Shown piece by piece: positions 3,432 through 62,416 of a DNA stretch of 64,000 nucleotides. This stretch comes from Lunularia cruciata (taxonomy: Eukaryota; Streptophyta; Marchantiopsida; Lunulariales; Lunulariaceae). Where the stretch lies: the NCBI GenBank assembly GCA_948567375.1, contig OX419758.1, positions 66,245,965 through 66,309,964 on the forward strand, in the 5' to 3' direction. The position numbers and the translations under genes are program-made. Each line of letters starts with the position of its first letter. Position 1 is the stretch's first letter. The notes beneath the pieces are model-generated. The model saw only the letters and a program-made list of their open reading frames with translations. It did not search any database and was not told the DNA's origin.

Positions 3432-3934
3432 TAAGTATCCGAGTAAGTCACGGATAAAATCCCCGTAACCGTAAAAGATACGGGTAACAAAAATCGCGAC
3501 CCGTACAAAATTTACGTGTTGGGTATGGGGACCATACAAGTTAATGGAGGCATTATGTAGTATTAGGCACTAATTCAAAGCATTACTTGAAGCTTTCTCT
3601 TGCTTGTAAACTGTACGTGTATCATTGGATTTCTTTTTCCCCTTACAGGCATTGGTATCTCTTTTCCACGTGACGGGCACAGATTTTGTATCAATTCGTC
3701 AGACGATCCATTAATTTCGTAATCTTCTCTTAATATTTCGTAATCCTCTCTAGAATCCAGGTCGTAATTTTAATGAGGTAACTTTGAGAACTGAATTTTG
3801 AAACTGTTCTTGAGACTTTCATCACCCGTAAATTATTTTCCGGAAAACTTACGGAAAACCCAACATCACCCATAAGTATCCGTCGTTTGTTTTAATCTAA
3901 ATGGGATTTTAGAAATAGAAACGACGGATACTTA
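3432..3934. mobile_element. Candidate small DNA-transposon derivative (MITE-like) with TAAGTATCCG ends
   Basis: TAAGTATCCG at 3432-3441 is matched by its inverse CGGATACTTA at 3925-3934, enclosing about 500 bp. The right end also folds on itself: a perfect 16-bp inverted repeat at 3873-3888 and 3919-3934 with a 30-bp loop. The interior is littered with CCCGTA/TACGGG and CCGTAA words, for example at 3421-3520 and 3830-3860. No open frame and no clear target-site duplication is visible, so the transposon reading is tentative. Confidence 0.4.
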
Positions 3935-6900: not shown

Positions 6901-7779
6901 TCCACAATGAGACTAGCAACTAAAAAGTGTTCTTGCTTGTGACTAGTAGTGCAATTTAAGATATATGCATCAAGTACATCTATACTATTTAAAATTCTCT
7001 ATTTCAATCACATATTTTCTCTTATAAATTAACTGAATCTCCTCATGAATCCAACATCAAAAGACTAAAATCTGACAATAGTGTTTGATGCAAAAGATAA
7101 TCTAGTAGGAGTTTTTGATGAAAAATGTAATATGCAAGAAACAAGTGCAATAACTAGTTTCTTTGCTAAATACAACCAAATATGCACTAGAGAATTATTT
7201 TCAAGTAGCAAAACTTTCTTCCTCCCACTATTCTTTATGGTTTGTTAAACTTTAGTAATTATGCTTAGAAAACTTGTCATATATTTATCCTTTTGATTTT
7301 GGAACCAATGATTCTTATGTATTATTTTCTTATTAGATACTTCCTTTCTTTTGGAGAGAGTAGAATGAACAGAAGAGATAAAAGGGAGGCTTCAAGTGAA
7401 AATATACTATACAATTTTAGAGAGCTTACCTGCATACATCATATGAGTGGATAGTTGCTTTTGTTCATTTTTCAATTTTGGTTCTATTGGTACCTAGATT
7501 GAAAGCTATGGAGAATTGAGTAGAAAGTTATGAGTACTTTTAGATTTTTTTAAGGTTTAGAGTGATTACTTCATATTGAGAGTGATGGATCAGGATTCTC
7601 ATTTCTAATCTCTTGGTATTCATGCTTGAGTTCCATGGGAACTTAGTTTGAAAATTTCTGCAATGAAGATTGTTATGAGAATTTATAATTTTTAGGGTTT
7701 GGAGAGATAGCATTTACTCATGTGAATTGGGATGTGAGTGGTTGTGGTTTTCCATGTATGGAGAAATTATGGAGAGGAG
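3935..7779. other. AT-rich intergenic DNA without a supported gene
   Basis: Strongly AT-rich with many A/T runs and stops in all frames. The only longer frame (5500-5739) has no recognisable features. The one clear structure is the tandem repeat listed separately. Parts of 6500-7000 may be very old retrotransposon sequence, but I could not assign a domain. Confidence 0.6.
6237..6471. repeat. Two-copy tandem repeat, 116-bp unit
   Basis: A unit beginning ATGATGTACATAGATAAATA occurs at 6237-6352 and again directly after it from 6353 to about 6470. There are only a few substitutions and a one-base insertion in the second copy. It is a recent local duplication in non-coding DNA. Confidence 0.9.
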
Positions 7780-10700
7780 CATAATGTGTTATGATTGTTA
7801 TTCTTGTGCTAGCCATGGCAACACTTCCTCATGTAGGGCCGCCTAGAGCTTCTCTGGATACACCATGCTTGATGTGTCATCAACTCTCTACTTTGCATGG
7901 GGTAAAGACCCATGTGAGAAGGATGCACAAGGACTATGATTGGACCACTTGGGATACTCATGTGAGGCAAGCAACCTTATTGATATTGGCAACAATTGAG
8001 ATTGTGCACTTATGTGATATCGGCGACAATTGAGATCTATCTCTTTGTTGATTGTTTCAAGGATATTGATCAAGTTGTGGGAGTGGTTAGCATCTCAAGC
8101 AGGTTGTATCTTGGGATTACTTGAGATTAATTTTCCATGTCCATATCTATTCTCTTCCACTCTATGATGAAGCTAGACAAGCTTTTTGCATACCGCTTGA
8201 TCTTTTGGCACGTGATCCCTTGGACAAGTTAACATGATTCTTATTCCTCTTACTCCCTTGATGGTGCCTTCATTATGCTAGAAGGAGATGTACGTGGCAT
8301 AAAGATTTGACTACTAGACTTCATTGATTTTGAATAGGGGATTGGGTTGCCCTACAAGAAGAGTTGGTTAGGGCTGCACATTTCAGGAGATAGGTTCTAC
8401 CATAGGATACCATAGAGTCCAATCAATTACAACGGTGTAGGACATTGAGTCAAGCATGAGAGTTTAGTAGAGCATCATGAGCACTACACCCTTTGTCTAT
8501 GGCTAGTCCCATTGATGAGACTATCTCTTGCCTATGCTCACTACATCCTATGGTAGGAGAGGGAGTACCATTAGAGGTCTTAGAATATCAGCCTGAGCAG
8601 CTTTTATATCTTGATAGGTCAATTTTTGCATAAGAATTGTGCATTGTCCCTTGCCTCTCCTCAAGGGGCTTGTCAAGGATGGTATATAAGCAATTAGATA
8701 TTGCTTTTAGGCATGTGATCTTTCTAGTAGATTTTACCAAGTTGTTTCAAGTGGTTGAGATAGTAGCAAAGAGAGATTAGGTGTTGGGAGCTAGTCTACT
8801 TCTCATGATGGAGAAGGATACAAGGAGCATTAGATAGATTGCTATTGGAGAGATCTTTTTGTGCTTGGTTAGCTGCACCATTGTCTTTTAGTATCAATCT
8901 CACTTCTAAGAGCACCTTAGTCCATATTAGTTTGGAGTAGTTACACTTGGAGGTTGTAAGGCTATTTTTCTAAGCATTTGGGCACTCCTAGATATCCATT
9001 TGGAGTGGGTTGTCCTATAAGTGGATGTTGAGAATGCTTTTAATAGCATCTTTTGAGCATCTATCTTTAGAGAGCTTAGGGAGGCTTGTGGATCCTTGGA
9101 AAGTCCCATTCCTTTTGTGTAGTCATTTTATTGCTCTCTTGCTTCCTTTTACTACCAACATGGATGGTCACAAGAAGGAGTCACCATCTTGGATTCAATT
9201 GTTGGTACACGATAAAGAAATCCTTTAGAGGAAGCTTTGTTTTCCGTGGCTCACTTCAAAGCTCTCTTATCTATTACTTTGGCCATGCCAGGTTTTGTAT
9301 TTCCATCCTTGGCAAACAATGCATATATTATGGACCCCACATATCAGATTAGGCATGCTTTTTATCATTTGACTACCAAGCTACATCTTGTGGGCTTGAG
9401 AGTCAAGGCGTCAAAGTGCAGAGCATGGTCCCCTTTAGGTATCACCACTTTGAGCTTCCAGAGAGGTGTGTCACATCTACAAATGGACTACATTTCTTGG
9501 AGTGATTGTAGGATCCAAGGATTTTGTCATATGCTTCTTAGATGCTACACTTGTAGAGGATATTCTGCATATGGATGATCTTTCTCTACTAGGAGATCCG
9601 TAAGTGGCATTTGGTAAACTCTCCTCTAGTATTGCCCATCAACCAACTTATTTTTTTCACATGGTTCCTCTTTCCTTCAATTTATTATCATGATTAAGAG
9701 CTTTTGATAGGAGTATTATAGGAGTCTTTGGTGATATCATTAGACCAAGGACATTTGAGTATATGATAGGGGATTTGTGTAATACCAATAGCTAGACATA
9801 TTAACTAGAGGTGAAAATTGGTGTGGTAACATCTAGAATGATTTTATGTGTGATGAGGTATATTAGATAGAGGTGTCACCAAAAGAGTACTTTATTAATA
9901 GGGCAAAAGTTAAAAATAACCTAAAGTTGTAATACCAATAGCTAGACATATTAGCTAGAGGTGAAAATTGGCTTGGTAACAACTGGAAGGATGTTATGTA
10001 TAATGGTTTAGGTAGATCAGATAGAGACGGTACCAAATGAGGACTTATACTAATAGGGTAAGAGCCAACAATAATCTTAATTTCAAAGCTAATTTTGGAG
10101 GCCTAAATAAATGAATTAGGCCTCAAAAATATATAAATTCCCTCTCCAATGGAGGCTGTATTTCCCTCCACCCTAGTTTTTCTCATCAAGAGCTTTCCAA
10201 TGGTACCTCACCCATGCAATTTGGAGATTCATATAGGAATATTCCTTAAGTTTCCCTTTGGTCAAAGGTGGTTTGAGCAACCAGATAAGATCATGATTGA
10301 CATGTCACCCATGCATGCAACTAATCTAAGAGTAGAGATCACTAAATGTCATCCATCCACGTATCTGATCCAAGGGTGGAGCTTCCTTTAGGTAGTCCCC
10401 TTTGCTATATAAGATAGTCAAGGTGCTTCTTTGGGGCATCAGAGGTTTGAGTGTGAAATTGTGTGTTTCTTATTATGTGTTTCTCTTAAGGTCAACTATC
10501 CTTGGAGTATTATAATTTGGCACGTAGACAAATATTTCTACTAATTGTGTGGCAAGGGGTAGGCTTATTACCTATAGAGGAGATGGCACCTATAGTGTTT
10601 TTGGGTAGTTGGGCTCTCTGAACATCCCTATTTTCCTCCCATTTTGTGGTTGTTGATAGGCTAGTTTTGGAGACATATGTGACCAAGATGGAGGAGGGGT

Positions 10701-10990
10701 CCTTTTCTCTCCAAGTCTTATTGCGCCAAATGAGAGATGGTCTATCACCATGGGCATGGGAGGACTTCACATCCTTTGTTTGTGGGAACGAAAACTTTTA
10801 TGCAAAACACTATGACAGACATTGCTAGGATGACATAAGCATGCAAGTTGGGATAACATAAATATGCATACAAGTTGGGATAGGATACTAAGTGTTATAG
10901 GGCAGATTCCTCTTACCAAGACGTAACTATTTTACCCCTAATATTTTTCTATATAGGGCTTGATGTGGACTTCTCATCTTCTTGTTATCT
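7780..10990 (+). mobile_element. Non-LTR retroelement copy A (zinc finger, RT, 3' tail), decayed, split by a solo LTR
   Basis: The most complete 5' end of this family. An ATG at 7815 (AGCCATGG) opens a frame with a CCHH finger at residues 18-38 (C-x2-C-x11-H-x4-H: PCLMC, then HVRRMH). After a degenerate linker, reverse-transcriptase blocks appear from about 8830: IAIGEIF, LGGC, a DVENAFNS-like motif A near 9020, and the block around the catalytic Asp pair near 9300, all broken by stops. The frame resumes after the inserted LTR (9778-10514) with the thumb-like segment FLGSW and LQVLLRQMRD at 10600-10750. The nuclease region is deleted, and a degraded 3' tail (GGGCAGATTCCTC) lies at 10900-10990. 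The element is inactive. Homology to copies B and C is plain along most of its length. Domain naming is from family knowledge; the exact 5' boundary is uncertain. Confidence 0.8.
9778..10514 (+). mobile_element. Solo LTR (family 1, 737 bp) nested in non-LTR copy A
   Basis: It starts TGTAATAC and ends GTATTATA, which is the inverse of the start with one C-to-T change (GTATTACA expected). It is flanked by a 5-bp duplication ATTTG at 9773-9777 and 10515-10519. The empty site is preserved in non-LTR copy C near 52317 (GTGGATTTGGCACG), proving the insertion. A TATATAA box lies at 10406-10412 about 100 bp from the 3' end. The first 150 bp are tandemly repeated inside the LTR (second start at 9928). 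No internal retrotransposon domain is present, so it is a solo LTR left by recombination. Confidence 0.88.
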
Positions 10991-11259: not shown

Positions 11260-14200
11260 AGATAGGGGCGATTGTGTAGAAAACTCAAAGGATGGGAAGA
11301 CCCCATCAAGGCGTACAAAGGTGAGACAAAATAGGTAAAATGGGGCTAAGCCTCAATAGAGTCTATATGAGAAATCTGCCCTACAACACTTAGATATCTG
11401 AGCTATGCACGTCATACCATGACACCCCTTTATGCATGTATGTGTTATTATGATATTTAGCTTGGTGTTACAAGTACTTGAGAGTGATATTATTTGTATG
11501 GAGATAAAAAAATGGTTATATATTAGTTATAATTAGCTTAAGTTAGTAATAGTTAAAATAGAGGGAACCTTACTTTAGAGGAAGTGCAAAATATGAGCAC
11601 TAATATTTTGGATGCTAGTGCATGACTTGGTATTATTCTTGGATGTTCATCTTTGAAGAAAGAGTTTAGAACTCTTGGACCTTTTTGTTTCAGATTCTTC
11701 TATAGTCCAAGGATAGCCCATGTGAAGAAATCTTTGACTTAGTGGTTGGGTCAAGATAAGACCACATTCTTAGGAAAGTATTCCCATGAATATAGATATT
11801 TTGTTAGAATTTTGACATTATTTGACTTTTAGCCTAGTAACTTGAGTTACCCCTGTAATTAATAACTATTTCATAAGTATATAAAGTAGCGGTGAGGTGG
11901 TACTCATCATCTTTTCAATTGCAACTATCTCTCTCTCTCATTGAGTTCTCTAGTGAACAATGGTTTGAGTCTTGGAGTGTTAGCCTTTAGAGGAGTATGA
12001 TGGAGTTGGGGTTTCTTGCCTTCTTAGTCCATGGTAAACTACCATAATAGCAATCAAAGATTCATCCAAAGTGAGAGACAAGTTGACTCACAGTACTGTC
12101 TACAAACAACTAGAGTACCCAAAGAAGCATCATGTAGTGTGATTGTGCTCTCATGGATTGCACTAGCCATTTCTCTCTATAGAGCAATGTACACATGCTA
12201 TCTAAAATATGCTACAAAGTGTGAGAGTGAGAGTGAGAGTGGTACCCTATGGCACCTAACATGATAAGCTCTTGCACACTCCTTGACAAATGTATCAAAT
12301 GTTGTGTCCATTGCTCCATATAACTCCAAGGCTAGAGGAACAAAGGGGTGACCTTGCTATGTATTCCTATACTTGGAGACCTTACGAGCTACTATTTCAC
12401 TCACCGCCCATCCAAGGAGATGGGTAATCACTGCCTTCAAAATTGTATCATGCATAGGATCCGTAACCATGACATTCGTTCTCATCACTTGATCATCTCA
12501 GACCAAGTATAAGTCTACCTTGACACATGTTGTATGCAAAGCATATGAACGCTCCCTCCAAGCCAAGTATCCACTCTCTTATGCCATAGTAAACATTATG
12601 TCCATAATACCATCATGGGTAGTTATCCTCTATCCTCCAAAAGGACACCATACCATATAGATAGCTATTACATCTAGTGTAGAACCATACTCACAAGTGA
12701 GTAATGAAGATGCATATGGATGGAATACACCTAAGAAAAATGTCATTGATGTAGAGAAAGTAGTTGGTGCAAGTTGGAATGTCCTAATGCATGGTCGAGC
12801 TAGGATCCAAAAGCCTACACCCTTGCTGGAGCAAGAGAAAATATGGGCTCTAGTAGCTTGAGGAATGGACAAGTCAAAAGAGAGAATGTAGCATATGTTG
12901 ACATTGTTGTTCCATCAAGGAAGAATGTAAACCTCTAGTCCAATCTAACAATAGTGCAGAAAAAAATAGAAGGTCCTTGTGTGCCTATGGAGATAGACTA
13001 TCTGTTGTCTATCACAATAACATATGGAGAGAATGAGATCTCTCTTCTATCTCTGCCATATAAGTCATCAAAACCAACCTATCAACAACCACAAAATGAG
13101 AGGAAAGTAGGGTTTTTAAGAGAGCCCAACTACCCCAAAATGCTGTAGGTGTCGTCTCCTCTATAGATAGCAAGCCAACCCCTCCACCTAAGATTGGTAA
13201 AACTATCTATTTATGTGCCAAATCCCCAATCACAAACTCAAATGTCCTTGGTCCAATAATATCACTAAAGACTCCCATAATCCTTCTATCAAAGGCTCTC
13301 AAACATGATAGGAAGGTCAAGGAGGAGGATCTATATGGAAGAGGTAAGTCAGTCAACGAGCAATACTAGAGGAGAGAGTACCAAATGCCACTTGCGGATC
13401 TTCTAGTAAAGGAAGGTCATCCACATGGAGAATATCCTATGTAAGAGTAGTGTTCAAGCAACATGTGACAAAATCCTCGGATCCTATTGGCACTCCAAGA
13501 ACATGTAATCCATTAATAAATGTGATGCATCCCTATGGAAGCTCAAGGTGGGGAGGGATACCTAAAGAGGACCATGCCTTGCACTTTGACACCTTGACTC
13601 TAAAGCCTACTAGATGTAGCTTGGTAGTCAAGTGGTCAAAGGCCTGCCTAATTTGATCTATAGGGCCCATGATATGTGTATCATCTACTAAGGAATTAAA
13701 TACACAATCTAGCATGGCCAAAGTAGTAGATAAGAGAGCTCTAAAGTGAGCCATGGCAAATAAGGGTCCCCTTAAGGGATCTCCCTCACGTGTACCAACA
13801 GTTGACTCCAAGACGGTGACTCCCTGCCGTGAACAACCATGCTGGTGGTAAAGGGAAGCAAGAGAGTCATAAAAAGACTGAATAAAAAAGAATAAGACTT
13901 GCCAAGGATACCCCAACCTCCCTAAGCTCTCCAAAGATGGACACTCATGAGATGCTATTAAAAGTGTTATCAACATCCACCTATAGGACGATCCACTCCG
14001 GGTGGATATCTAAAGAATGCCCTAATACCTAAAGATAAGCCTCACATCCTCCAAGTGTACCTACTCCAAAGTAATGTGGATTGAGGTGTTATCGGAAGTG
14101 AGAACAATGTTGAAGGATAATGGTGCATATGACCAAATGCAAAAAAGATCTTTTTAATAGCAATTAGTCTAATACCTCCCGTGTCCTTCTCCATAGTGAG

Positions 14201-15000
14201 AAGTCAATTAGCACCTAACACCCAACTAAAATACATAGGAATGTCTCTTCTCGCTACTACGGCAACCACTTGAAACAACTCGGTAAAACCACTAGAAGAA
14301 TCATTTGCCTGAAAGCAATCTCTAAAATATGTAAACAATCTCTAAACAATCCTTGACAAGCTTCTTGAGGAAAGGCGAGGGGCAATGCACAATGCTTGTG
14401 CAAAAAGTGACAATCATGACATAAAGGCTACTAAGGCTAATAATCTAAGACCTCTAGTGTTAATCACTCTCTTGCCATAGGATGTAATGAGTGTCAGGAA
14501 AGATAGTCTCATCAATAGGACTAGCTATAGACAATGGGTGTAATACTCATGCTGCTCTACTAAACTCTCACGCCACACCCAATGTCCTACACCGTTGTAA
14601 TTGAATGGACTCTAGACTCTATGGTATCCTATGGCAAAACCTATCTCCTCAAACATGCAACCCTAACAAACTCCTCCTATAGGGCCGCCCAATCCCCCAT
14701 TTGGAATTGCCAAAATCTAGTAACCATTTCTCTATGCCCTACATGTCTCCCTCTAGCATAACATAAACACCATCAAGAGAGTAAAAGAAATAAGAACCAA
14801 GCTAACTCGACCAAGGGCTCACGTGCCAAATGATCAAATGGTAAGCAAAAAGCTTACCTAACCTCATCATGGGAATATACGAGATAACCTAAGGAATATA
14901 TGTGGACATGGAAAATTGATTTCAAATAACACCAAGATGCAACTCGTCAGATAAACTAACTACTCCCATGAGTACATCGACATTTTTGGAACAATCAACA
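11260..15000 (-). mobile_element. Non-LTR retroelement copy B (RT and nuclease region), decayed, split by a solo LTR
   Basis: Read on the minus strand from about 15000 down to 11260. The best piece is the frame 13976-13533. It carries palm motif B (TREGDPLRGPLFAMAHF) and the catalytic block SLVDDTHIMGP, where VDD replaces the usual (Y/F)ADD, followed by LVGFRVKVSKCKAW. Downstream come the thumb, a Cys/His knuckle region (12900-12600) and the PD-(D/E)XK-like block with VDLYLV and KVSKYR equivalents near 12520-12370. The 3' tail lies at 11419-11260, beyond an inserted solo LTR (11420-12092). Stops and indels interrupt every domain. Its 3' end faces that of copy A about 270 bp away, so the two form a tail-to-tail inverted pair. 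Confidence 0.8.
11420..12092 (+). mobile_element. Solo LTR (family 2, 673 bp) nested in non-LTR copy B
   Basis: It aligns along its whole length with the solo LTR at 41105-41795. It starts TGACACCCC and ends GACTCACA. A TATATAA(A) box is near 11880, and a CTCTCTCT tract follows. The sequences on both sides are consecutive parts of the non-LTR 3' region (compare about 53420-53450 in copy C), so this is an insertion. No clean target-site duplication survives. Orientation is judged from TG...CA and the TATA position. Confidence 0.8.
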
Positions 15001-15494
15001 AAGGGATAAAAGAAACATGAATAATACTCAAGTGTCATTATTATCAATATGATTGTACAATTCATATGAGTATCTCAAATGGTTTAATCATAGTGAAATC
15101 ATCCAAACCTTCTCATATGAATTATAATGGATCATATGAATCATAAAGTAAAACATCTTTGTCACACTACACCCAACATAGTGTATCCCAAGTTGCTCTA
15201 GTCAATATCACATGGAAAAATATACCCATGGTTAATACAAGGGTAATGATCATAAGACATGATTTTTTTTCCCATCTTTTCCCTTTCTCGCCCTTGCAAG
15301 ATCACAACTCCTCACATCACAACTCACATAAATATTATCTCTCCAAACATTGAAATCTATATACTCACAATTTTGAATTTTAATTTTCTTAATTATTTGA
15401 CTTAAATAAAAAATTAAAATTAAACACTCTCCTCATATTTTTCTTAATGTTTAAATCATTAAGAAATCATTCTAAATTTTAAAAAAATAATTTT
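15001..15494. other. AT-rich spacer, nothing identified
   Basis: AT-rich DNA between non-LTR copy B and a 3'-tail stub. I see no coding signal or repeat boundary here. Confidence 0.5.
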
Positions 15495-15633
15495 AGAGGA
15501 AATAGACTATGCATAAACAAATCAAAGGATGGGAAGACCCATCAAGCCCTGCAAGGGTGAGAAAAAAAGGTAACATGGGGCTAAGCCCCAATATATACGA
15601 GAAATGAGAAATCTGCCCTGCCAAAAAGATAAT
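15495..15633 (-). mobile_element. 3'-tail stub of the non-LTR family
   Basis: On the minus strand it reads through the conserved tail: CAGATTTCTC, then GGGGCTTAGCCCC (15577-15589 palindrome), a TTACC-pyrimidine stretch, then GGCTTGATGGG and TCTTCCCATCC. Only the terminal part is present, as expected for 5' truncation during target-primed reverse transcription. A short (AACTTT)n run sits beside it at 15646-15667. Confidence 0.7.
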
Positions 15634-23454: not shown

Positions 23455-23730
23455 ATAATCCCCTCCTTGATTCCGTTCGCCCACTCATTCTACGCTTGTT
23501 GTATAATCATCATACTATCATAGTAGACTTTACATTGCTTGCATTTGTTGAGTGTACATGCTATAGGGATCCACTTGGAGTACCTCTTTTTGCCATAGCT
23601 CACTACATCATTTTACGAGAGGTGGTACTTGCTTTTCCATTTTGTCTCTTTCTATCCCTCTTAGAAGATATTCACATTTTAGGCCATTTAGAGGATGTGA
23701 TTCATGCTATAGTTGTTATTACATGCAGCA

Positions 23731-23818
23731 TAGAGATCTTGGGTTTACAAGTCAAGACTCTTGAATGTAAGGTATAGAGATCTTGGGTTTACAAGTCAAG
23801 ACTCTTGAATGTAAGGTA
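23731..23818 (+). repeat. Perfect 44-bp tandem duplication inside the RT of copy D
   Basis: TAGAGATCTTGGGTTTACAA and the next 24 bases occur at 23731-23774 and again at 23775-23818. The unit is not a multiple of three, so it shifts the frame, and GLQVKTLECKV is read in both units in different frames. It is a post-insertion event. Confidence 0.92.
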
Positions 23819-24078
23819 TGGAGTCCATGTGCAATTCTCACTCCCTCAAACTTTCCATCAAGGTTCCAATTCCCATTAGGAGGCTTGAGAGTGTTTAGTT
23901 CTCCACTAAGAGTAAAAGATTACTACAACATGTTCATATCTAATATATCCGTGCATGCCACAACTCATGTTCACTTATTCCCTAGGTAGGGGAACACACG
24001 TGAAGCTTACTCCATCTAAGCACATTGCTATCTCTCTTGAGCCTCCTATCTAGCTCATACATACCCTCTCCTACATAG

Positions 24079-24815
24079 CATAATATTCCAAGGATAGAGA
24101 AGCATCATAGAGAGAAACATGAATTCCACACTCAAACTCCGATGCCCCAAAGGAGCACCTTCTCTTTATTATATAGCCAAAGAGGACCTCCTCCAAAGAA
24201 GCTCCACCATAGGATTAGGTACATGGATAGGTGACCTATCAGCAAGCTCCACCCTTAGATTACTTTGCTTGGATAGGTGACATGTTGGTCCTGGTCCCAT
24301 CTGGTTGGTCAACATGCTTTGACCAAGGGGAATCTTTTAGGGAATCTTCCTATAGGAATTTCATAATCACATGGGTGAGGTACCATTGGAAAGCTCTTGG
24401 TGAGACAAACATGAGAGGAGGGAAGGCTAACCTTTCCTTTGTTGGGGGGACTCTGCACATTCTTGAGGTCTAATTCATCCGTTTAGGTCTTTGAAATTAC
24501 CTCTAAAGTTTTTAGGCCTATTTTGGCTTCTGCACTATTAGTAGAAGTGATCTTTTGGTGATACTTCTATTTGATCTACTTTCTCTATCATGTGTAACAT
24601 TCTTCAAGATGTCAACACCCCAAATTTCACTTTTAGATCATATGCCTAACTATTGATTCTAAAGTTTCCAAGCATGTTTTGGTTTTTGGCCTATTAGTAG
24701 TACTCTTTTGGTGATACCTCTGTCTGCTCTACTTAGTCTATCATGTATAACATCCTTCCAGATGTTACCAAACCAAATTTCATTCTAGATAATTTGTCTA
24801 GCTATTGGTATTACA
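24079..24815 (-). mobile_element. Solo LTR (family 1, 737 bp) nested in non-LTR copy D
   Basis: Reverse-orientation relative of 9778-10514 and of the same length. On the minus strand it starts TGTAATACC at 24815 and ends near 24079. The flanks CATAG (24074-24078) and CAAAG (24816-24820) agree at four of five positions, a worn target-site duplication. A TATATAA box lies on the minus strand at 24175-24169. The RT reading frame of copy D runs up to one side and resumes on the other. Confidence 0.82.
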
Positions 24816-26010
24816 CAAAGGCACTTCTACCACACTAACACATATTTGATAGTACCATTTGTCACACTTTCTACACTTTGTTAGGGCCATGTATGTTGTC
24901 ACAACTACAAGAGGAGTGGTGTAGTTTACATATAGCCTTACTCATAGTTATGGGAGGATGTGGTCTCTTACTAGGGAGAGCATATCTCCAATAGCCTTTA
25001 TAGGTGCATGGGTCCTAGTGGGTCTCTGCTCAATCAATAGGTCCTATAAGATGGTCAACATTTTCTGTTTTCACCTATCATAACAATGGATTCAAGTACC
25101 CATGACTTTCAAATTTATCTATGATTGGCTTGTGACGTTTTATCCAACATTGCATGCACATTATCCCAATGTTTGCCAACTTTTGTTTCATTAGACTCCA
25201 TGAAGATTTAGGGAACCATCAATGAGCATGTGTACACGCTCCTTCACCAACATCCTCCCTAACATGCCATTATTTGATAGAGGTAGGATTCTTTCCTATG
25301 GAGTGAAAGGCTCTAGAGCTTGGTTCCATGCCTCTCTTTTGATAGAGGATTTTTGTTTCATTTTTGAGGAGATTTCTACTAAACTCCACCTATATTTAGG
25401 TTTTCCTTATATAGCATTGCTAGGGCTCTCATTATAGCATTGCGGTGCATCTATGTGTACACATTTGACACACATGGCATATATCTATTATGGTGTGCTA
25501 TAATAGGAGAGCACACTAGAGTTCATAATGTCATTCAAGATATAGTTGCTCAACTCATCTACATGGTCCTAGATATAGATTGAGTGGTGGTTGGATTAAC
25601 CCAAACCACCTCCACGGAGTGATTGTAGATATCATCACATTCATAAAGGGTTGGTGAACTTTGTATGATGTGGTGGTAGCAAACCCCCTACAAGCAAAGA
25701 CACTAGCACAAGCAAGTATTTAGGCAAAAGCAATAACCACCATTGTAGCTTGAGGATAGGAGGTCATAACACACCATGGCTCACTTTTGAGACATTTGTT
25801 CCTTTGGCTGTGGAGATTTTTGAGCATCTTCATCACCATTTTGGCAGACTGCTTAGAGAAGCAACAAGAGGTTCCTCACATAGGTGAGAGGCTATGGCTA
25901 TCTCCCAAGCCATTCTCATTGCCTACTTTTGACAGAGAGTCTCAATCACACTATAGCTCTCTTAGGCCAAGAGTCTTCATAGATGGCGGCCATAAATAGG
26001 AGTGCTCATC

Positions 26011-26795: not shown

Positions 26796-27107
26796 AAGTC
26801 AAAGCTGTCGTTCTTTTGGCTCTTCTGTACAGCACATTTTGTCACCCGCCGATAATTCTTCTGAACCTTCATTCTCTTGATGATTCTTCAAGAAGAAAGG
26901 CGACCGCGTAGGATACTAAGATGTTTGGAAGACTCGTATCAATCCGTACAAATAAAAAACATAAAAAAGTAAGAGGTAAACCTAGGGGCTAAGCCTCAAT
27001 AGTATCGATATGAGAAGTCAATGCTGTCCTTGTTTTGGCTCTTCTGTACAACACATTTTGTCACCAGATGATAATTCCTCTGAGCCTCAATAGTATCGGT
27101 ATGAGAA
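26796..27107. repeat. Imperfect segmental duplication carrying a non-LTR 3'-tail stub
   Basis: The segment from 26796 (AGTCAAAGCTGTC) reappears at 27016 (AGTCAATGCTGTC) for about 72 bp, then jumps to AGCCTCAATAGTATCGGTATGAG, which also ends the first unit (about 26992-27015). The first unit is thus a 220-bp block and the second is the same block with its middle deleted. The deleted middle (26895-26990) is a minus-strand non-LTR 3' tail (GGCGACCGCGTAGG, then GGGGCTAAGCCTC at 26985). Confidence 0.7.
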
Positions 27108-41104: not shown

Positions 41105-41795
41105 TGTAACACCCATTTGTGCATGTGTGTGGTATTGTGATATTTAGCTTAGTATTACAAGTACTTAAGAGATATTATTTATATAAAGATAAAGGATGGT
41201 TCTATATTAGTCCTGGTTAGCTAAAGTTAGTCATAGCTAAGATAGAGGGGACCTTACTTTAGAGGAAGTAGAAAAGATGAACACCACTATTTTGGATTTT
41301 AGTGTGTTGACTTGGTATTATTCCTAGGTGTTTGGCTTTGAGGAAAGAGTTGAGAACTCTTGGGCCCGCAAGCTTTTTTGTTTTGGATTTTTCTTTAGTC
41401 CAAGGATAGCCCATGTGAAGGAATCCTTGACTTAGTGGTTGGGTCAAGATAAGACCACATGCTTAGGGGAATATGCCCATGTGAATGGATATTCCTTTCT
41501 ACTTTTTGACTTTACTTGACTTTTAGTCTAGTAACTTGAGTTACTACGATATTAGTAACTTTGGTACATAACTATTTCACAAGTATATAAACAAGGGGTG
41601 AGGAGGTACTCATCATCCTTTCATTTGCAACTATCTCTCTCTCATTGAGTTCTCTAGTGAGCAATGTCTTGAGTCTTGGAGTGTTAGCCTTGGAGGAGTA
41701 TGATGGAATTCTGGTTCCTTGCCTTCTTAGTCCATGGTGCGCTACCATAATAGCCATCAGAGGTTCATCTTGAGTGAGAGACATGCCGGCTCACA
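41105..41795 (+). mobile_element. Solo LTR (family 2, 691 bp) nested in the gypsy element
   Basis: It starts TGTAACACCC and ends GGCTCACA, flanked by GGCC on both sides (41101-41104 and 41796-41799), a likely 4-bp target-site duplication. A TATATAA box lies at 41584-41590, and a CTCTCTCTC tract follows. It aligns end to end with 11420-12092. Confidence 0.85.
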
Positions 41796-44208
41796 GGCCA
41801 ACCTAATCTATAAGAGGCTATCTCTTCCCAATAGTCAATATTGAAACCCATGGGTTTCAATATTGACTATTGGGAGGAGATAATATTCAATATTGCTCCA
41901 CCAACTAGCACATCATATAACTTTGCTATTGTCATAATGGCTCAAGCTCTCACCCATAGAGCTATAAATCAAATGACCGGGCTAAATCTAGACAATGAGC
42001 TCTCCACATTTGATGTACTCCCTAGAGATGTTTGGATATAAAATAAACACCCCTCCACATTGGTCATCCGTAGCTCAAGACCAATACCTAAAGCTTTCTT
42101 TAACATAAAGGGTTGCACACCAGAATCTAACCCTCTATGGTGTATAGACCTTCCTTAAGGGTCTCACCAAAAAAAAAATCCCCCTTTGGTTATCCAATAA
42201 GACAACTCTAGGTGTGAACCAAGCTTGTTCAAAGGCAGGCCTAGTTGGTAACTCCTCCAACCTAATTGTGTTGCTTGGCATAAACCATTGGTCATTAAGC
42301 AGATCCCATGCTCCTCAACCAAGTCAACTCCACTATCAACCACCTTTATAGGAAACACATCATTCCTAATCTCGCAAAGTGTAGCAACCAACTAAAACAC
42401 TAGAGTTAGGTCAACTTCTAATGTAAACATGCCATTGGTTGAGAAAAAAAGGAAGCATATAATCAATTGAGTTGCTCTTGATAGTATGCTAAACTCAATC
42501 TATGTAGTAGCAGGTGGCTCACTCACATCTAGTCCATCATGCACTCCATTCCCACCTAACATACTTGCATTAGGATGTCTAAGAGCCATGAATGTCATCT
42601 AGAGTGCCTCAAAGAGTGTGAAAGATTGTGGAAATTTGACCAATCTACCAACCTCTCTTCTTTGTGGATCCAACTCCATTGATGCTCTTCTAGGCTCTAA
42701 AGCATGTATTACATTCATAATCAATACAATAGATGCATCTACTTGTGTTACTCTCTACATAAAGTGCAAGACATCTTTATTACCAACATAAGAAGTGGAA
42801 GTCTCAACAGCCAATTCTGATCTCATCCAAGCTATGACTATGCTAGCCAATCTCTACTCCAAATGCTCAATTTGAGTAGCTAAGGCTATATCAAAAGCAA
42901 GGGCATGTATTGCACTCCTACCAAGTTGGGTCCTCTACCACCATCTCCACAACCTTGTCTTCCATGACCTAGAGCTCCTCTACCACCTACCATAACAACC
43001 CTACCATTGCATAACTTTGGGTGAAGGTCAAAGCATTTATCACTAGTGTGACCAAATCTATGACAATGGTTGCACTATTTTTGTGCTGGTTGTGATGCAC
43101 CAAAGATACCATGTCTAGTTCCTTGAGTGCACTCTTTCTTGTGGTGAGGTCCACCACAAGTCCAACAAGCAACACCACTACTCATTGGCTACTATTGACT
43201 TGAAAATGAAAGTAAAGGTCTAGCTACATTAGGCCTTCTACTTGCTCCATAAGATCTAGGTTGTCCACTTTGGCCTCAAAAGCCATCTAGTGTGGTGCAC
43301 TTTGTTGTACTTTAGAAGAAGTAATAATTGTGGATGAGATCTCCTACCAAGTCTAGATGTCACCACTCTCTTCTCTACCATGTTGAGCTCAATATGCTAA
43401 GCCAAAATAAAGATCACTACCAAAATAGGTAGGTAGCTTGTAACAACATCACATACTTTATGTTGCAACTCTTTGTCCAAGATCCTATACCAAAATTGGA
43501 CTACTTGGGCCCCAATAATTCCCTAAGTGAAATTAATAAGCCATCTAATGCAAGTGTATTCCTTGAATAGGCTCTCTCTAGCCTTCCATTGGAACTCTTA
43601 CAAGCTCATCAACTTGTTAGTCCATACTCCTTGGTAGTTTTGCCTCAAACATTAGAAGAACTCCATCATGGAGTTAAACCTTGGTATTATATCACTTCTT
43701 ATAGCAATACCTCCACTCGTAGTAGCCCGTCTCCAACAAGTGCACCTCCACTAGATACACCAATGCTACTAGAGCTAAAACTTGTGGGTACTATTGACTT
43801 ACCCCTAGCAATTGAGCTTGAAGTGATGGAGATGTAGTTTGGAGACCAATATTATCTCTATAGCTTGATCTCCTCCAAGTAAGCTCTCCTAAACTCATGA
43901 TAGTCATCCATTGGTAGACCCTCCTAGTGCTAAAACAACACCTTCCATGCCATGAAGGGTGTGGACAAAGTCAAGTTATGCATCTGTTCCAAATCACAAC
44001 AACTATCAAACTCTTGGATGAAGTTATCCAACTCAATGGTACCTACTATACTAAAGTAATGCTTAGGGTCTTTGGTGGCCCAATAAATCTTACCATGTCA
44101 CACAACAAGAATGTGTACACCCTAGGTTTATTTTCAACTAAATCAACTCCTATATCAAACTCCAAATCAGATTTAATTTCCTCTCACTAAGACCTAAGAT
44201 ATAAGTTG

Positions 44209-47200
44209 TGTAACAATATGAAGTTAACGGACAAGTTAGTTAAGACTAATGAAGTAGAAAATAGGCCAAATTAGCCAATAATTTAAAAAAAAATTAGAAG
44301 CATCTAGGAAGCTTCTTTCTACCTACCAAGTATTAGGTAACATGTATGTCAAGTGGTAACTTTTAGGAAGAAGTTTCTTGGAAGCTTCTTGGCTAGCTTA
44401 GCTTGCATCCCAAGGAGGTGGTTTCTAGAAGAAAAATTCTTGGGAAGTTTTCTGACTAGCTTAACTCGCATGCCAAGTAGGTGGTTTCTAGAAGGAAGCT
44501 TCTCAAGAAGCTTATTGGTCAACATACCTTGCACTCTAAAAATACAACTATTAGGGAGCTTCTCAAGAGTCTTGTATGTCCACTATAAATGCCTAAACCC
44601 AAGCTCATGCTATGCATTCAAAGTTTTGCTTATTTAAGAGTCCTAATGTGATCTTTTACTTTGATTTCTATTCTCATTTCTCCTTGGACTTTTATTTGAT
44701 ATAAGAACAAGAAGGGATGGATAGAATTTATGGACCACCAAATTCATTTTCCTTGAACCATTGATATTTTTGTGTCTATGTACTATCCAAACATTATTTC
44801 ATGTAATTCATCATTGCACATTTTGGGTAGAATTTTCTAAATATGATCACCTTGTTTGATGAACCTTTTGTTTGATGATACTTCTAATTGTAACTTGCAT
44901 AGAATGGTGGGTATGTTGCATCTACATGTTTACTTAGATAATTGTAAGTAGTTTGATAGAGTAGTAGCCATGGCAACAATACCCAAAGTTATTATTATGT
45001 AATAACAAATCAAACATCTTACTTGATTGTTGGAAGAAAGAGATTATCAACAACAAGAGCATGTAAAGAGAGCACCATTTTGAGAAGTAGAAAAGCAAAT
45101 CAAATTTCCAAAGCCCAAGGTATTTGAAGGTAATAATTTCTTGAAAATAAAAGAATTTTTTATTTGATTGTGAATGTCATTTTGAAGCTAAAAATCTTCA
45201 ACATGAATAGAGATAGATTCTCTTTGTTTCAACCAATTGGATAGAGTGGCAAAACTATGTTAACAATTCCAAGTAGAGCAAATTGAATGAAAAAAATTTC
45301 TACCAATCTTAACATGGGAAGAATTCAAGATCACAATAATTGGGCAATTAAAAGCTTTAAACTACGCACAAGATAGATTGGCAAAATTGAAGCATATTGG
45401 TTATGTAAGGAGCCATATCACTCAATTCTAGACCATTAGAAGGCAAATCCTAGATATACTAGAAGATGAAGCTTTGGATCAATTTTTAATGTACTTAATT
45501 GGAAGTGACCATGTGGGAACCCAAACACTTGGAGGAAACCATGCAATTGGCTTAGTACTTTGATTCGTTGGTTTTGACAACTTTGTCTCAACCTCAAATT
45601 TTATTGAACCTACCAACCATTGCACACAAGTGGAAGAGCCAACACCAATGAAGATTGATGCCATCCAACAGAGATCACTTGGCATTGGAAATAGGGAAAG
45701 ATTGTAACAAAACAATGGTTGCTTTTATTGTTATCAAATTGGACATTGCATTGTTGAGTGTCCACTCAAGAATGGACAATCCTAAAAAATTAATCAATTG
45801 GAGTTTGTGGAGCATGATGATCAAGAAATCCAATAAAAGAGTTCGAGTCACCTATTGAGACCTTGATTAGTTCCAATGGGATTGAAGGCTCAACTTATGC
45901 AAGTTTGCTTCACTTGCAAAGTATGATATCTTATCATGATTGTAAGATTTTACTTGATTCTAGAAGTTCAAAGAATTGCATGTCTATGCAATTAATAAAG
46001 AAATTAGGTATTTTTATCAAGCTAATAATTAGTATTAGATTGATGATAGTAGATGTTAAAAATGGTTTTGCATTTTGTACTTCATATCTTATTACATTCA
46101 AGATTGGAAAGGAGTATTTGGAATGCATGAGGTTTGTAGTGACACCTCTACACTTGATGTCATTCTAGGTTTACCTTGGCTTGAATATAATAAGGTTCAA
46201 TTTGTTTGGACCCATTAAAAATACAAGTACAACACCAAGGTAAAAAATACCAATTAGGTTTTTTGGCACCTTTGAGTATGATACCTAAGAATAATCAATT
46301 TCAAGATGAAAAGTTTGTCAATAAAGTAGCTATAAATCAAGCTTTGGAGGAAGATATTCCTAGTTTTGTGCATGGAGAATCTAATGAGGGCCAAAATCCT
46401 CATCAAGCAATGGTTGATTAGATAGTTCAAGAATTTTTAGATGTGTTTTTGGATGATCTACCAAAGGTGTTATCCTCCAACAATGGTATGGCCTTCAAGA
46501 TCAAGTTAATGCTAGGAAGTATTTTAGTGGATAGACCAATCTATCGGCTCTCACCAAAGAAGTTGGAAGAGCTTTGAATAAAACTAATGGAATTATTGGA
46601 GAAGGATTTCATACAACATAGTACATCTCCTTGGGAAGCACAGGTACTACTTGTCCCAAAGAAGGATGGAAGACTTTGCTTCTGTATTTATTATTTTGGT
46701 CTCAATAAACTAACATTGAAGAATGAATATCTTTTGCCTTGAATTGATGACTTGCTATATCAATTGAGTGGAGCACAATACTTCCCCAAGTTGGATCTTT
46801 GAAGTGACTATTTGCAAATCCCATTCACAGATAGGATGTACAAAATATTACCTTTTGCACAAGGTATGGCCATTTTGAATGGAGAGTCATACCTTTGGGT
46901 TTCACTAATGCTCCAAAAGTCTTCATGGATCAAATACATTGGGTGTTGGTTGAGCTATTGGATTGGCATGTAGTGGTGTTCTTGGATGGTATTTTAATCT
47001 ATAAGAAGACAAAGGTAGAACACAAAAATCACATGCAAGAAGTCTTCAGACAACTATGTCAATGGAAGATTTGCTACAAGAAGTCAAAGTGTACCTTTTG
47101 GTAGAAGGAAGTTACCTTCTTGGGTCATCAGGTATCAATAGAGGGGATGAAGATGGATGAGGAAAAACTCAAGGTCATTATTGGTTGGCCTACTCAAAAA

Positions 47201-51510: not shown

Positions 51511-53590
51511 TCTAGTCCTAGATATCCATCCGGAGTGGGTCGTCCTACAGGTGGATGTTGAAAATGCTTTTAATAGCGTCTCATATGCATCCATCTATAG
51601 AGAGCTTAGGGAGGCTGGTGGATCCTTGGCTAGTCTCATTCCTTTTGTGCAGTCTTTTTATAGCTCTCTTGCTTCCTTTTACTACCAGCATGATGGTTCA
51701 TAAGAGGGAGTCACTGTCTTGGAGTCAATTGTTGGTACACGTCAGTGAGATCCTTTGGGAGGGCCCTTATTTGCCATGGCTCACTTTAGAGCTCTCCTAT
51801 CTACTACTTTGGCCATGTAAGGTTGTGTATTTCTCTCCTTGGCAAATGATACACACATCATAGGCCCTATAGATCAGATTAGGTAGACCTTTGACTACTT
51901 GACTATCGAGCTACATCTAGTAGGCTTGAGAGTCAAGGTGTCAAAGTGTAGGGCATGGTACCCTTTAGGTATCCCTCCCCACCTTGAGCTTCCAGAGGGG
52001 TGTATCACATCCACAAATGGACTTTGTGTTCTTGGCTTGCTAGTAGGATCGGAGGATTTTGTCATACGCATCTTAGACGCTACCCTTGCAGAGGATGTTC
52101 TCCATGGGGATGACCTTCCGTTACTAGGAGATTTGTAGGTGGCATTTGGTATACTCTCCTCTAGTATTGCTTGTCGACCATCCTACCTCATCCGCACAGT
52201 TCCTCTCTCATTGTCCTTCCTTTCACTTTTGAGAGCATTTGAGAGCATTTGATAGGAGGATTATGGGAGTCTTTGGTGATATTATTGGACCAAGGACTTT
52301 TGAGTGTGTGAAAGTGGATTTGGCACGTAGACAAACGGCCTTGCCGATCTCATGTGGTGGGGTTGGCTTGCTATCAATGGAGAAGACGACACCTATAGCA
52401 TTTTTGGGTAGTTGGGCTCTCTTGGCACCCCTACTTTCCTCTTGTTTTGTGGTTGCTGATAGGCCAATTTTGGAGACTTATGTGATAGAGGTGGAGGGAG
52501 GATCCTTTTCTCTCCAGGTGTTATTGCGGCAGATGAGAGATAGTCTATCCCCATGATCACAAGAGGATTTCCCACCTTTTGCTTCACTATTGTTAGATTG
52601 GACTAGAGGTTTACAATCTTCCTTGATGGAGCGACAATGAGAGCATACGCTACATTCTTTCTTAGTCAACTTATCCATTAGCTACTAGAGCACGTCTTCG
52701 CTCTTGCTCCGGCAAGGGTGCAGGCTCTTGGATCCTAGCTCTATTGTGCATTAGTGCATTCCAACTCGCACCAGCTACTTTCTCTACAACGATGAGGTTT
52801 TGCCTAGGTTTGGTCCACCTATCTGCATCTTCATTACTCACTTATGAGTGTGGTTCTACACTAGATGCAACAACAGTCCACATGACATGGTGTTCTTTTG
52901 GAGGACAGAGGATAGCTACCCATGATGCCATTAGGGACATAGTGTTTGGTATGGCACGAGAGAGTGGATACTTAGCTTGGAGGAGCGTTCGTATGCTTTG
53001 CAGACAACACGTGTTAGGGTAGACTTATATTTGGTCCAAAATGATCAGGTGACAGTAGCGGATGTCGTGGTTACAGACCCTACACGGGATACAATTTTGG
53101 AGGGAGTGATTACCCATCCACTTGGATGGGCGGTGAATGCAATAGTAGGTTGCAAGGTCTCCAAGTATAGGGGCATGCAGCGAGGTCATCTCTTTGGTCC
53201 TCTAGCCTTGGAGTTATATAGAGTGATGGACACGACATTTGATACATTTGTCAAGGAGTGTACGAGAGCTTATCATGTTAAGCGTCAGGGATACCACTCT
53301 CACTCTCATACTTTGTAGCATATTTTAGACCGCATGTGTACATTGCTCAACAAAGTGCATTGGTTGGTGCAATCCATAGGAGAGCAATCACATTAGATTA
53401 TGTTTCTTTGTATGTTCCTATTGTGTGTAGGCCAGACAACTTGCATAGCTTGGATATTTTAGGTGTGATAGGGCAGATTTTTTATATAGATTCCATTGGT
53501 GCTTGGCCCCATGTTACCTTTTTTGTCTCCTCCTGGTGGGGCTTGATGGGGTCTTCCCATCCTTCGTTGTTCCTACGCGGTCGCCTTTTC
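51511..53590 (+). mobile_element. Non-LTR retroelement copy C (RT palm to nuclease and 3' tail), best-preserved C-terminal half
   Basis: 5'-truncated at the RT palm. Read with a few stops and shifts: PEWVVLQVDVENAFNSVSYA (motif A, 51530-51590), DPLGGPLF-like motif B near 51760, SLANDTHI (motif C, Asp changed to Asn) near 51840, LVGLRVKVSKCRAW, the thumb (FDRRIMGVFGDIIGP, ALPISCGGVGLLS, FLGSWALLAPL), then TYECGSTLD...CSFGGQRIATHDAIRD (Cys/His knuckle, 52840-52945). Next is the PD-(D/E)XK-like block VRVDLYLVQND...VADVVVTDPTRDTI...GCKVSKYRG (53010-53180) and PLALELYRVM. The 3' tail runs to about 53590 (CCTACGCGGTCGCCTTTTCC). Possible target duplication: TCACACAAT near 51501 and TCACACACAAT near 53591. 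The order RT, knuckle, REL-like nuclease resembles R2/REL-type elements; that link is inference from motif order. Confidence 0.82.
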
Positions 53591-54643
53591 CTCACACACA
53601 ATCGAGCACTCATTTCGGTGTATTATAGTTGCGGGCTTTGCACCTTTAGACGGATAAAGTCTCGAGTATGGGAGTCTGTACGTACAGAACGTGCAAGTTG
53701 ACTGGATTCTATTTGAACGGCAAGTTGAAACGGAAAGTCAACGGTAACGTACGTAGATCCCATGTTCCTCCTATCCATATTCGAGCGAGAACGGACTCGT
53801 CTCGAGTGAACGTCTCCCACGAGAATTCTTACTCACAACACGGCTTCGTTCAGCTGCACGACTGCTTGTGTAAGGAACAGGACTCTCCAAACTCGACCGA
53901 GGATTCACTTCAAGCTAAACACTCGATTATAAGCCGTTTGATTAAAATCGACCGTTGAGATTCCGGAATCTTCCATATCTATGTTAATGTTGGGTTTCAA
54001 TGATCGACTAAGTCGGTACTAGGTCCCCCTACATGTCGGTATGTCCCGGTCACCATACGCTGGTTGGAACATGTGTCTCGGCCATGACCGGGAGGATACC
54101 GGCGGAAGGAGGCACTGGGGCGGCCGGGAAAGGATTAGTGGGGAATCAAGGCGGGAATCAACAAAGGGAGGGGACCAACTGGGGCGCACCGACTGTCAGT
54201 GGAGAGGGGAAGGAAGGGAGGAAGAAGAAGGGGGGATAGTGGTGGCAGAACTTCGCGGATTCCATCTCTTCAAGCGATTAATTTCGCGCAGTAGTTTTCT
54301 TCCTTCTAAATCTTTCCCGTTGTGACATTGCTGCTGTGGTGTGCTGGCTACTCGTGCATTTTACGGATGGGAGGTGGATGACAGGAAAGAGGCAGCGGTG
54401 CATGGAGCTGGTCTCCTGAGACCATCGATCGATTTCCAAGCAACCCCGAGCGTTTTTGGTCGAGGGGCTTCTCGGAAGCTTGTTTGGATTTCTGGTGGAG
54501 TACGTGCAGCAAGAAAAGGGGAATAATTAACAGGTTCAAAGGAGCTTTGATCTAAATAGGGATTGAAGGCTTGTATATGGTCGGAGTTCAGGGGATTAGG
54601 ATTGAGGTTTCAAGGTGGCAATTGGACGGGAGAACTCGGGAAG
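53591..54643. promoter_or_regulatory. Upstream region and 5' leader of the IPUT1-like gene
   Basis: About 1 kb between the non-LTR tail and the IPUT1-like start. The half nearest the gene is G-rich (54090-54240, GGGAAAGG/GGAAGGA) and contains no domain-bearing frame. A 5' UTR intron is possible (GTACGTGCAG at about 54500, CAG near 54534) but cannot be shown. Confidence 0.4.
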
Positions 54644-60654: not shown

Positions 60655-61370
60655 GGCAATCAAGGTCTCTAAGTCGCTTTTTATTCCTTTAGAATTAAAA
60701 AAAAATTTCTTCTAGCTTTGAAAAGGTATGGAACTATAGATCCTGCATTTGATATATTTGTCAAGGATTGTGCAAGACTTTACCATACGAGACAAAAGGA
60801 CATCATTTTCAATTATTTAATAAAACGTGACCGCATGTGAAAGCAAGAAGGAAAATACAAGGAAAATATAAAGCAAGAAAGATTGGAAGACCACATCAAG
60901 CCTTACAAAGAAAAGACAAAGGGGTAAAATGGAGCTAAGCCCCAATAGGATGGGGGCAAGAGGAATCTGCCCTAAGATTCCTGAGCTATGCAAGTTGTAT
61001 GGTCTGTAACAAATTGGAGTTATCTGGTCAAGTATCACCTAGTGTGATTGTTTTCCAATGGATTGCACCAGCACATCATTTTCAATTACTTCACTCTATA
61101 ACTTTCATTTTCTTATTTATAATTTAGTTAAACAACTTGTGCCTCTTGTTTTAAAGATGGATATAATCCATAAAAGAGTAATTACACTAAGTAAAATTTC
61201 TTGGTATACTTATTCTAATGATGTGTAAATATTTTAACTTATATATCTCTGATATTATCTGATATTCTAGGTATGATAAAATAGATTTCTCTTTCCGATG
61301 ATATTGAGACTTAGCCTCTTAAGTTTTATCCTTATACAACTTGATAGAATCTTCCTATACTTATTGTTAT
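60655..61370 (+). mobile_element. Non-LTR retroelement copy F (very old 3' part), interrupted by a younger relative
   Basis: Matches the end of copy C in order: the GCKVSKYR-region DNA (CAAGGTCTCTAAGT), then DPAFDIFVKDCARLYH at 60739-60786. After the nested insert it resumes with ATCCATAAAAGAGTAATTAC, TTTCTTGGTAT and a degraded tail (GATAAAATAGATTTCT, TTAGCCTC) to about 61370. AT-rich drift is far greater than in copy C, so the copy is old. Confidence 0.7.
60819..61072 (-). mobile_element. 5'-truncated non-LTR insertion with 19-bp target-site duplication
   Basis: A 254-bp minus-strand 3' end (from GGTGCAATCCATTGG to CATGCGGTCACGTTTTATTA) flanked by ACATCATTTTCAATTATTT at 60800-60818 and ACATCATTTTCAATTACTT at 61073-61091, 18 of 19 bases identical. 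This is the expected product of target-primed reverse transcription. It sits inside copy F, so the family moved at least twice at very different times. Confidence 0.88.
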
Positions 61371-62319: not shown

Positions 62320-62416
62320 GAGAGAAAACGATACCGCGAGTGAAATCAAGAAGGATGGGAAGCCCATCAAGCAGGACAAGGGGAAGGAACAGACAACGGG
62401 TTAAAATGGACCCCAA
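62320..62416 (-). mobile_element. 3'-tail stub of the non-LTR family
   Basis: On the minus strand: TTTGGGGTCCATTTTAACCC, a pyrimidine/CCTTG stretch, GCTTGATGGGCTTCCCATCC and CTCGCGGTATCGTTTTC. This parallels the last 110 bp of copy C, with a partly lost GGGGCTTAGCCCC palindrome. It is a short 5'-truncated insertion. Confidence 0.65.

What the first reader, a model, noticed from the sequence alone, without database searches (positions are those of the whole stretch)
51511..53590. Plant non-LTR retroelement family with CCHH finger, RT, Cys/His knuckle and PD-(D/E)XK-like nuclease
Piecing copies A (5' end), B (palm) and C (C-terminus) together gives an R2/REL-like layout: N-terminal CCHH finger, RT with VDD/AND-type catalytic block, C-terminal knuckle and a VDLYLV...DVVVTDP...KVSKYR nuclease signature. 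Plant non-LTR elements are mostly of the L1 and RTE kinds, which carry an apurinic-type endonuclease upstream of the RT. No such domain is visible here, so this is a plausible under-described plant lineage, possibly site- or motif-guided.
Basis: partly seen in the sequence, partly recalled or inferred. Interest (0 to 1): 0.75.

Follow-up and report, generated by a model that had tools for sequence, protein, structure and literature searches.

The report
Plant jumping gene with R2-type nuclease
The stretch is a worn-out copy of a repeated land-plant jumping gene whose intact copies make one protein with a zinc finger, a reverse transcriptase and an R2-type restriction-like nuclease; plant elements of this class are usually described with a different nuclease, and this one inserts at scattered places rather than at one chosen site.

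Summary
Confirmed. 51516-53589 (+) is a 5'-truncated, frameshifted copy of a 3.74-kb non-LTR retrotransposon. Two intact copies read here (99.3% identical) encode one 1,055-aa protein: C2H2 finger, reverse transcriptase with a normal ADD box, CCHC knuckle, restriction-like endonuclease (REL); no apurinic endonuclease (APE) was found. REL rests on a collinear profile match to R2Tg (E 1.8e-44), a REL-only profile match to R2 (probability 97.8, E 1.1e-12) and conserved catalytic columns; the best structural matches of a confident model are R2 proteins, with L1 close behind. In an RT tree the family is split (100/100) from 16 R2 and 10 APE-type rows. Named streptophyte relatives: Riccia, Diphasiastrum, Closterium; a sponge protein belongs to the wider clade. 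The host has NAC genes, so a land plant is likely.

Copies share a fixed 3' end. Of 39 testable insertions, 21 have flanking duplications of 9 nt or more (20 above their shuffles) at unrelated sites without a shared motif, so 'possibly site- or motif-guided' is not supported. 'VDD/AND' is decay.

Membership of HERO, NeSL, R4, CRE or Dualen could not be tested by tree, so a new clade is possible but unproven. My open-access searches found no paper on REL-only LINEs in land plants.

The parts
51516..53589 (+). Copy C, the finding: 5'-truncated element (element positions 1665-3735), frameshifted
   Evidence: 89.6% to the element in L040; five frame blocks
51515..52243 (+). Copy C: RT part, residues 394-636
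   Evidence: tblastn 85%
52215..52670 (+). Copy C: end of RT/thumb and linker, residues 624-775
   Evidence: tblastn 82%
52843..52893 (+). Copy C: CCHC knuckle, residues 835-851 (first Cys is Tyr here)
   Evidence: placed from the ungapped block 52636-52986; reading; columns
52971..53291 (+). Copy C: REL nuclease block, residues 878-984
   Evidence: tblastn 81%; REL profile match to R2
53285..53503 (+). Copy C: C-terminal end of the protein, residues 983-1055
   Evidence: tblastn 67%
53504..53589 (+). Copy C: stop, 3' UTR and fixed 3' end ending CCTACGCGGTCGCCTTTT
7445..9777 (+). Copy A, 5' and middle part (element 112-2461, 78.6%)
7866..7928 (+). Copy A: N-terminal C2H2 finger
   Evidence: reading; tblastn block starting at 7815
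10515..10781 (+). Copy A, continuation after an interruption (element 2457-2723, 78%)
12093..15380 (-). Copy B (element 334-3583, 80.2%)
11267..11417 (-). 3'-end piece (element 3580-3731)
15525..15622 (-). 3'-end piece (element 3613-3710)
26892..27019 (-). 3'-end piece (element 3622-3738, 69.5%)
60877..61072 (-). 3'-end piece (element 3509-3711)
62322..62382 (-). 3'-end piece (element 3677-3738)
23496..25983 (+). Older, diverged relative of the same clade: RT pieces 23496-24067 and C-terminal piece 25795-25983
   Evidence: tblastn 38%, 29%, 38%; BLASTP 38% over 92 aa

Best explanation
A restriction-like-endonuclease (REL) LINE resident in a land-plant genome, here as a dead 5'-truncated copy. 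Shown by sequence: one 1,055-aa protein with a C2H2 finger, helical N-terminal part, RT, CCHC knuckle and REL; a fixed 3' end with a short T-rich tail; 5' truncation; flanking duplications, mostly 9-13 nt, at unrelated sites. Inferred from R2, not shown: the protein binds its own RNA, REL nicks one target strand, the RT copies from the RNA 3' end off that nick, and a second staggered cut gives the duplication. Unlike R2, it does not use one target sequence.
For: Intact ORF in two copies and 30 of 71 listed matches in stop-free frames of at least 1,055 aa (my count). Profile match to R2Tg E 1.8e-44 over profile positions 207-918, with knuckle and REL collinear. REL-only hhalign to R2: probability 97.8, E 1.1e-12. 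D895 invariant, E882, D908 and K939 at least 90% in 26 rows. AlphaFold2 model pLDDT 85.5, pTM 0.83; first seven Foldseek matches are R2 chains. No APE. Fixed 3' end and target duplications.
Against: VIA Z barely separates R2 (19.2) from L1 ORF2p (17.9), and an APE LINE of this genome also matches R2 better than L1 in its RT, so RT or fold scores alone do not decide. The REL was not folded alone. 18 of 39 testable copies show no repeat of 9 nt or more (one of these, at 8 nt, exceeds its shuffles). No activity was tested.
Confidence: 0.92

Rival explanations
1. It is a plant-resident member of an already named REL clade, most likely HERO, whose members often insert without a fixed target; then only the host is new. 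(This refines the best explanation rather than opposing it.)
For: HERO is described as holding many non-specific elements (PMC4640811 passages; PMC3636483 passages), as seen here. The wider clade also holds a sponge protein.
Against: None gathered; no labelled HERO, NeSL, R4, CRE or Dualen sequence could be fetched, so it was not tested.
Confidence: 0.5
2. It prefers a weak sequence motif at the cut site.
For: Pyrimidine in 17 of 20 at position -2, T in 13 of 20 at +2, and C or T in 16 of 20 at the last duplicated base.
Against: The strongest column (chi-square 14.4, 3 df) gives about 0.07 after correction for 31 columns (my arithmetic); 6-mers are shared no more than in shuffles; duplication edges may be shifted by microhomology.
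Confidence: 0.15
3. It is a member of the R2 clade proper.
For: R2 proteins are the best PDB matches by sequence and structure.
Against: RT tree: family and 16 R2 rows are separate, 100/100 and 100/97; A-box NAFN in 32 of 32 family rows, in 0 of 16 R2 rows; insertions are dispersed.
Confidence: 0.03
4. It is an L1- or RTE-type LINE that lost its APE and looks R2-like by chance.
For: RT and fold scores overlap between the two types.
Against: A REL domain is present and the RT is outside the APE rows sampled.
Confidence: 0.02

Closest known systems
R2 (R2Tg, R2Bm, R2 of Platysternon megacephalum; PDB 9nl3, 9dou, 8gh6, 9nl2)
   Same: One ORF; N-terminal zinc finger, RT, CCHC knuckle, REL in the same order; collinear profile match and best structural match
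   Different: Dispersed instead of 28S rDNA insertion; no Myb domain found by Pfam at E<=1, while some R2 relatives list one; separate RT clade and NAFN instead of KAFD/QAFD/RAFD
HERO and other non-specific REL LINEs (HERODr, HEROFr, EhRLE3, YURECi, BLAG)
   Same: REL layout and non-specific insertion, as described in PMC4640811, PMC3636483 and PMC7650587 (passages)
   Different: Those named there are from animals or Entamoeba (the host of EhRLE3 is recalled); relation by tree not tested
Dualen/RandI LINEs of chlorophyte algae
   Same: Green-lineage LINEs with a REL (PMC4640811 passage; presence in Chlamydomonas relatives, PMC8226300 passage)
   Different: Dualen also encodes an APE; none found here
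Proteins of Riccia fluitans (P0007), Diphasiastrum complanatum (P0008) and Closterium (12 rows)
   Same: Nearest named homologues, 31-52% identity over 40-97% of the query; one group with this family at 100/98
   Different: Partial, unannotated database proteins; structure of their elements not examined

Membership tests
REL-type (R2-group) non-LTR retrotransposons | One ORF with N-terminal zinc finger, RT, CCHC knuckle | tested here: met
   Intact ORFs; alignment columns
REL-type (R2-group) non-LTR retrotransposons | PD-(D/E)XK-like nuclease after the knuckle | tested here: met
   whole-model match. REL not folded alone
REL-type (R2-group) non-LTR retrotransposons | No APE before the RT | tested here: met
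REL-type (R2-group) non-LTR retrotransposons | Fixed 3' end, 5' truncation, no LTRs | tested here: met
   comparison of two copies shows no terminal repeat, only a 25-nt repeat at the 5' end
REL-type (R2-group) non-LTR retrotransposons | Target-primed reverse transcription by REL nicking | not testable with these tools
   Needs protein
R2 clade | Insertion into 28S rDNA | tested here: not met
   Unrelated flanks and duplications
R2 clade | RT within the R2 clade | tested here: not met
   16 R2 rows
L1/RTE (APE) LINEs | APE before the RT | tested here: not met
L1/RTE (APE) LINEs | RT nested among them | tested here: inconclusive
   Outside ten APE-type rows, but no labelled RTE and only one L1-like element of known host
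Dualen | Both APE and REL | tested here: not met
   No APE
HERO | Insertion mostly non-specific | tested here: met
   clade description from PMC4640811 passages
HERO | RT within the HERO clade | not testable with these tools
   No labelled HERO sequence could be fetched
CRE, R4, NeSL/Utopia | RT within that clade | not testable with these tools
   No labelled sequences could be fetched

The most novel reading that the evidence does not exclude
The streptophyte elements belong to a deep, unnamed clade of REL-only LINEs, marked by an NAFN RT A-box, carried in the green-plant line since before the split of Zygnematophyceae and land plants; it inserts without a fixed target and is a recently amplified parasite in a bryophyte-like genome.
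Probability: 0.35. Interest if true: 0.65.

Novelty: new member of a known kind. Interest (0 to 1): 0.48.

Why it matters
A REL-only LINE with near-identical intact copies in a land plant, and relatives in a liverwort, a lycophyte and a zygnematophyte, would extend the older LINE type to streptophytes. It would also give a natural REL protein that inserts without one fixed target, which bears on how R2-type proteins, now being engineered for DNA insertion (PMC12222951, abstract), choose their sites. Repeat annotation of such plants may leave these copies among unknown repeats.

Tried and rejected
Site specificity: the long copies among 30 loci (two places fetched twice) end at window-equivalent 53587-53595 and run into unrelated flanks; 20 duplicated sites show no motif that survives correction. 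A SINE borrowing the 3' end: the short tails begin at varied points, and their upstream pieces match each other only where they overlap one another or are LINE sequence (my reading), so I take them for 5'-truncated copies. A conserved 3' hairpin: 11 pairs predicted in 16 rows but a covariation term of 0.09, so unproven; Rfam finds nothing in L040 at E<=0.1. Selection among copies: changed codons are 7 synonymous and 10 not (L039/L040), 20 and 24 (L030/L040), too few to say and not tested against a model. RT similarity alone as a test of R2 against APE: rejected, because L145 also prefers R2. zf-RVT search: no match here and none in the controls, so no absence is claimed. Literature: searches showed no paper on REL-only LINEs in land plants; the library lacks most subscription papers. 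Passages only were seen of PMC4640811, PMC5348765, PMC7650587, PMC12222951, PMC12203849, PMC5678591, PMC3636483, PMC9985172, PMC10294476 and PMC8226300; every other paper only in search listings.

Full report
WHAT IS THERE. The finding's coordinates are right to within five bases. The copy runs 51516-53589 (+) and matches positions 1665-3735 of a 3,738-nt element (taken from L040) at 89.6%. Its coding part covers residues 394-1055 in five blocks that switch frame, so it is a dead, 5'-truncated copy. Two longer copies lie in the window, A at 7445-10781 (+), interrupted, and B at 15380-12093 (-), with five 3'-end pieces and an older relative at 23496-25983 seen at protein level. The REL query had 151 matches in the genome, itself included.

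THE INTACT ELEMENT. For the 623-aa RT-to-REL query, 30 of the 71 listed matches lie in stop-free frames of at least 1,055 aa (my count; the list is the top of 21,733 first-look candidates, hence biased to intact copies). I read two, L039 and L040. They share 3,738 nt at 99.3% without gaps. The ORF gives 1,055 aa from the Met before the finger. Order: C2H2 finger (C18, C21, H33, H38), helical N-terminal part, RT with ADD at 503-505, helical linker, CCHC knuckle (C835, C837, H847, C851), REL, C-terminal helices. The finger's own model confidence is low (pLDDT about 30-55); it rests on the sequence pattern and on like patterns in some homologues (P0004, P0006).

NO APE. Pfam finds only RVT_1 above its cut-off in the full protein, and the model has no strand of three or more residues before 330. 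APE LINEs do exist in this genome.

TREE. With 58 RT rows the family (32) is one side of a branch at 100/100, R2 (16) at 100/97 and APE-type rows (10) at 99/97. P0244 was dropped because its RT is cut short; 8 of the 10 APE-type rows have an EEP domain on record, P0246 and P0254 do not. The program warned of long branches (P0254, P0062) and of uneven composition in 13 rows. The root is unknown, so which pair is closest is not settled. The A-box reads NAFN in 32 of 32 family rows and KAFD, QAFD or RAFD in the 16 R2 rows. A second tree of 31 rows joins this family, Riccia, Diphasiastrum, 12 of 12 Closterium rows and six unnamed rows at 100/98; this family, Riccia, Diphasiastrum and the six sit together at 98/92. 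Other rows outside include a sponge (Ephydatia) protein, so the wider clade is not confined to plants. An APE LINE also matches R2 better than L1 by phmmer, so RT scores alone should not be used here. HERO, NeSL, R4, CRE, Dualen and RTE references were not available.

INSERTION. The long copies end at the same 3' end, about CCTACGCGGTCGCCTTTT with a short T/C tail, and run into unrelated DNA. I fetched both ends of 50 further copies and added L039 and L040. Of 52, 13 lacked a recognisable end motif and were dropped. Of 39 tested, 21 share 9 nt or more between flanks; 20 of these exceed the best of 20 shuffles of their own, one (L113) does not. Of the other 18, one 8-nt repeat (L089) exceeds its shuffles and 17 do not. 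The 20 lengths are 9-13 in 18 cases, 16 and 28 in one each. No 6-mer is shared beyond shuffles and no base bias survives correction for the 31 columns tested. Nicking by REL and priming on the nick are inferred from R2.

HOST. The genome has 566 Mb with eight contigs of 60-85 Mb among those seen. It has 15 NAM (NAC) domain matches, with none in the 14 control genomes, and the window holds a receptor kinase with LRRNT_2, LRR and kinase domains. The nearest named relative of its L1-like family is a liverwort protein, Riccia sorocarpa. I infer a land plant, perhaps a liverwort; the species is unknown.

NOVELTY. The layout is that of known REL LINEs, and non-specific insertion is on record for HERO and others (passages). 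New, as far as my searches reach, is a recently amplified REL-only LINE in a land plant. I file it as a new member of a known kind; a new clade is possible and untested.

Noticed in passing
G000: C1 46.28-46.50 Mb, C2 33.2-34.3, C6 25.25-25.64, C7 46.54-46.88, C8 39.42-39.66, C10 20.29-20.76, C11 25.99-26.45, C12 25.25-25.61 (L145, L146): A two-ORF, APE-bearing L1-like LINE family is clustered in one short interval of each of the eight large contigs, with few listed matches elsewhere on them (146 matches, capped list). It looks centromeric, like the ZeppL elements of Chlamydomonas (PMC8226300 passages); named relative in Riccia sorocarpa. Centromere identity and ZeppL kinship not tested.
   Followed up: partly
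L041-L140, 5' ends of full-length copies: Between the upstream target duplication and the common 5' core lies a variable leader (15 to 103 nt in the 20 supported cases). Some copies share leaders, e.g. L057 and L067, or L040, L045 and L047. It may reflect transcripts begun in upstream DNA or template jumps; unexplained.
   Followed up: no
L040 5' end: The 5' UTR carries short GGAGCTGCGGG repeats that differ in number between copies.
   Followed up: no
window 17038-19624 (-): A receptor-like kinase gene in pieces: LRRNT_2, LRR and kinase domains in 18233-19624 and kinase in 17553-17927.
   Followed up: partly
window 11507-12093 and 41191-41796 (+): Two copies, 82-91% alike, of another dispersed repeat (families D4, D6, D7, D13), not identified.
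   Followed up: no
window 45821-46168 (+): Open frame that looks like the protease of an LTR retrotransposon (ILLDSRSSKN, by eye).
   Followed up: no
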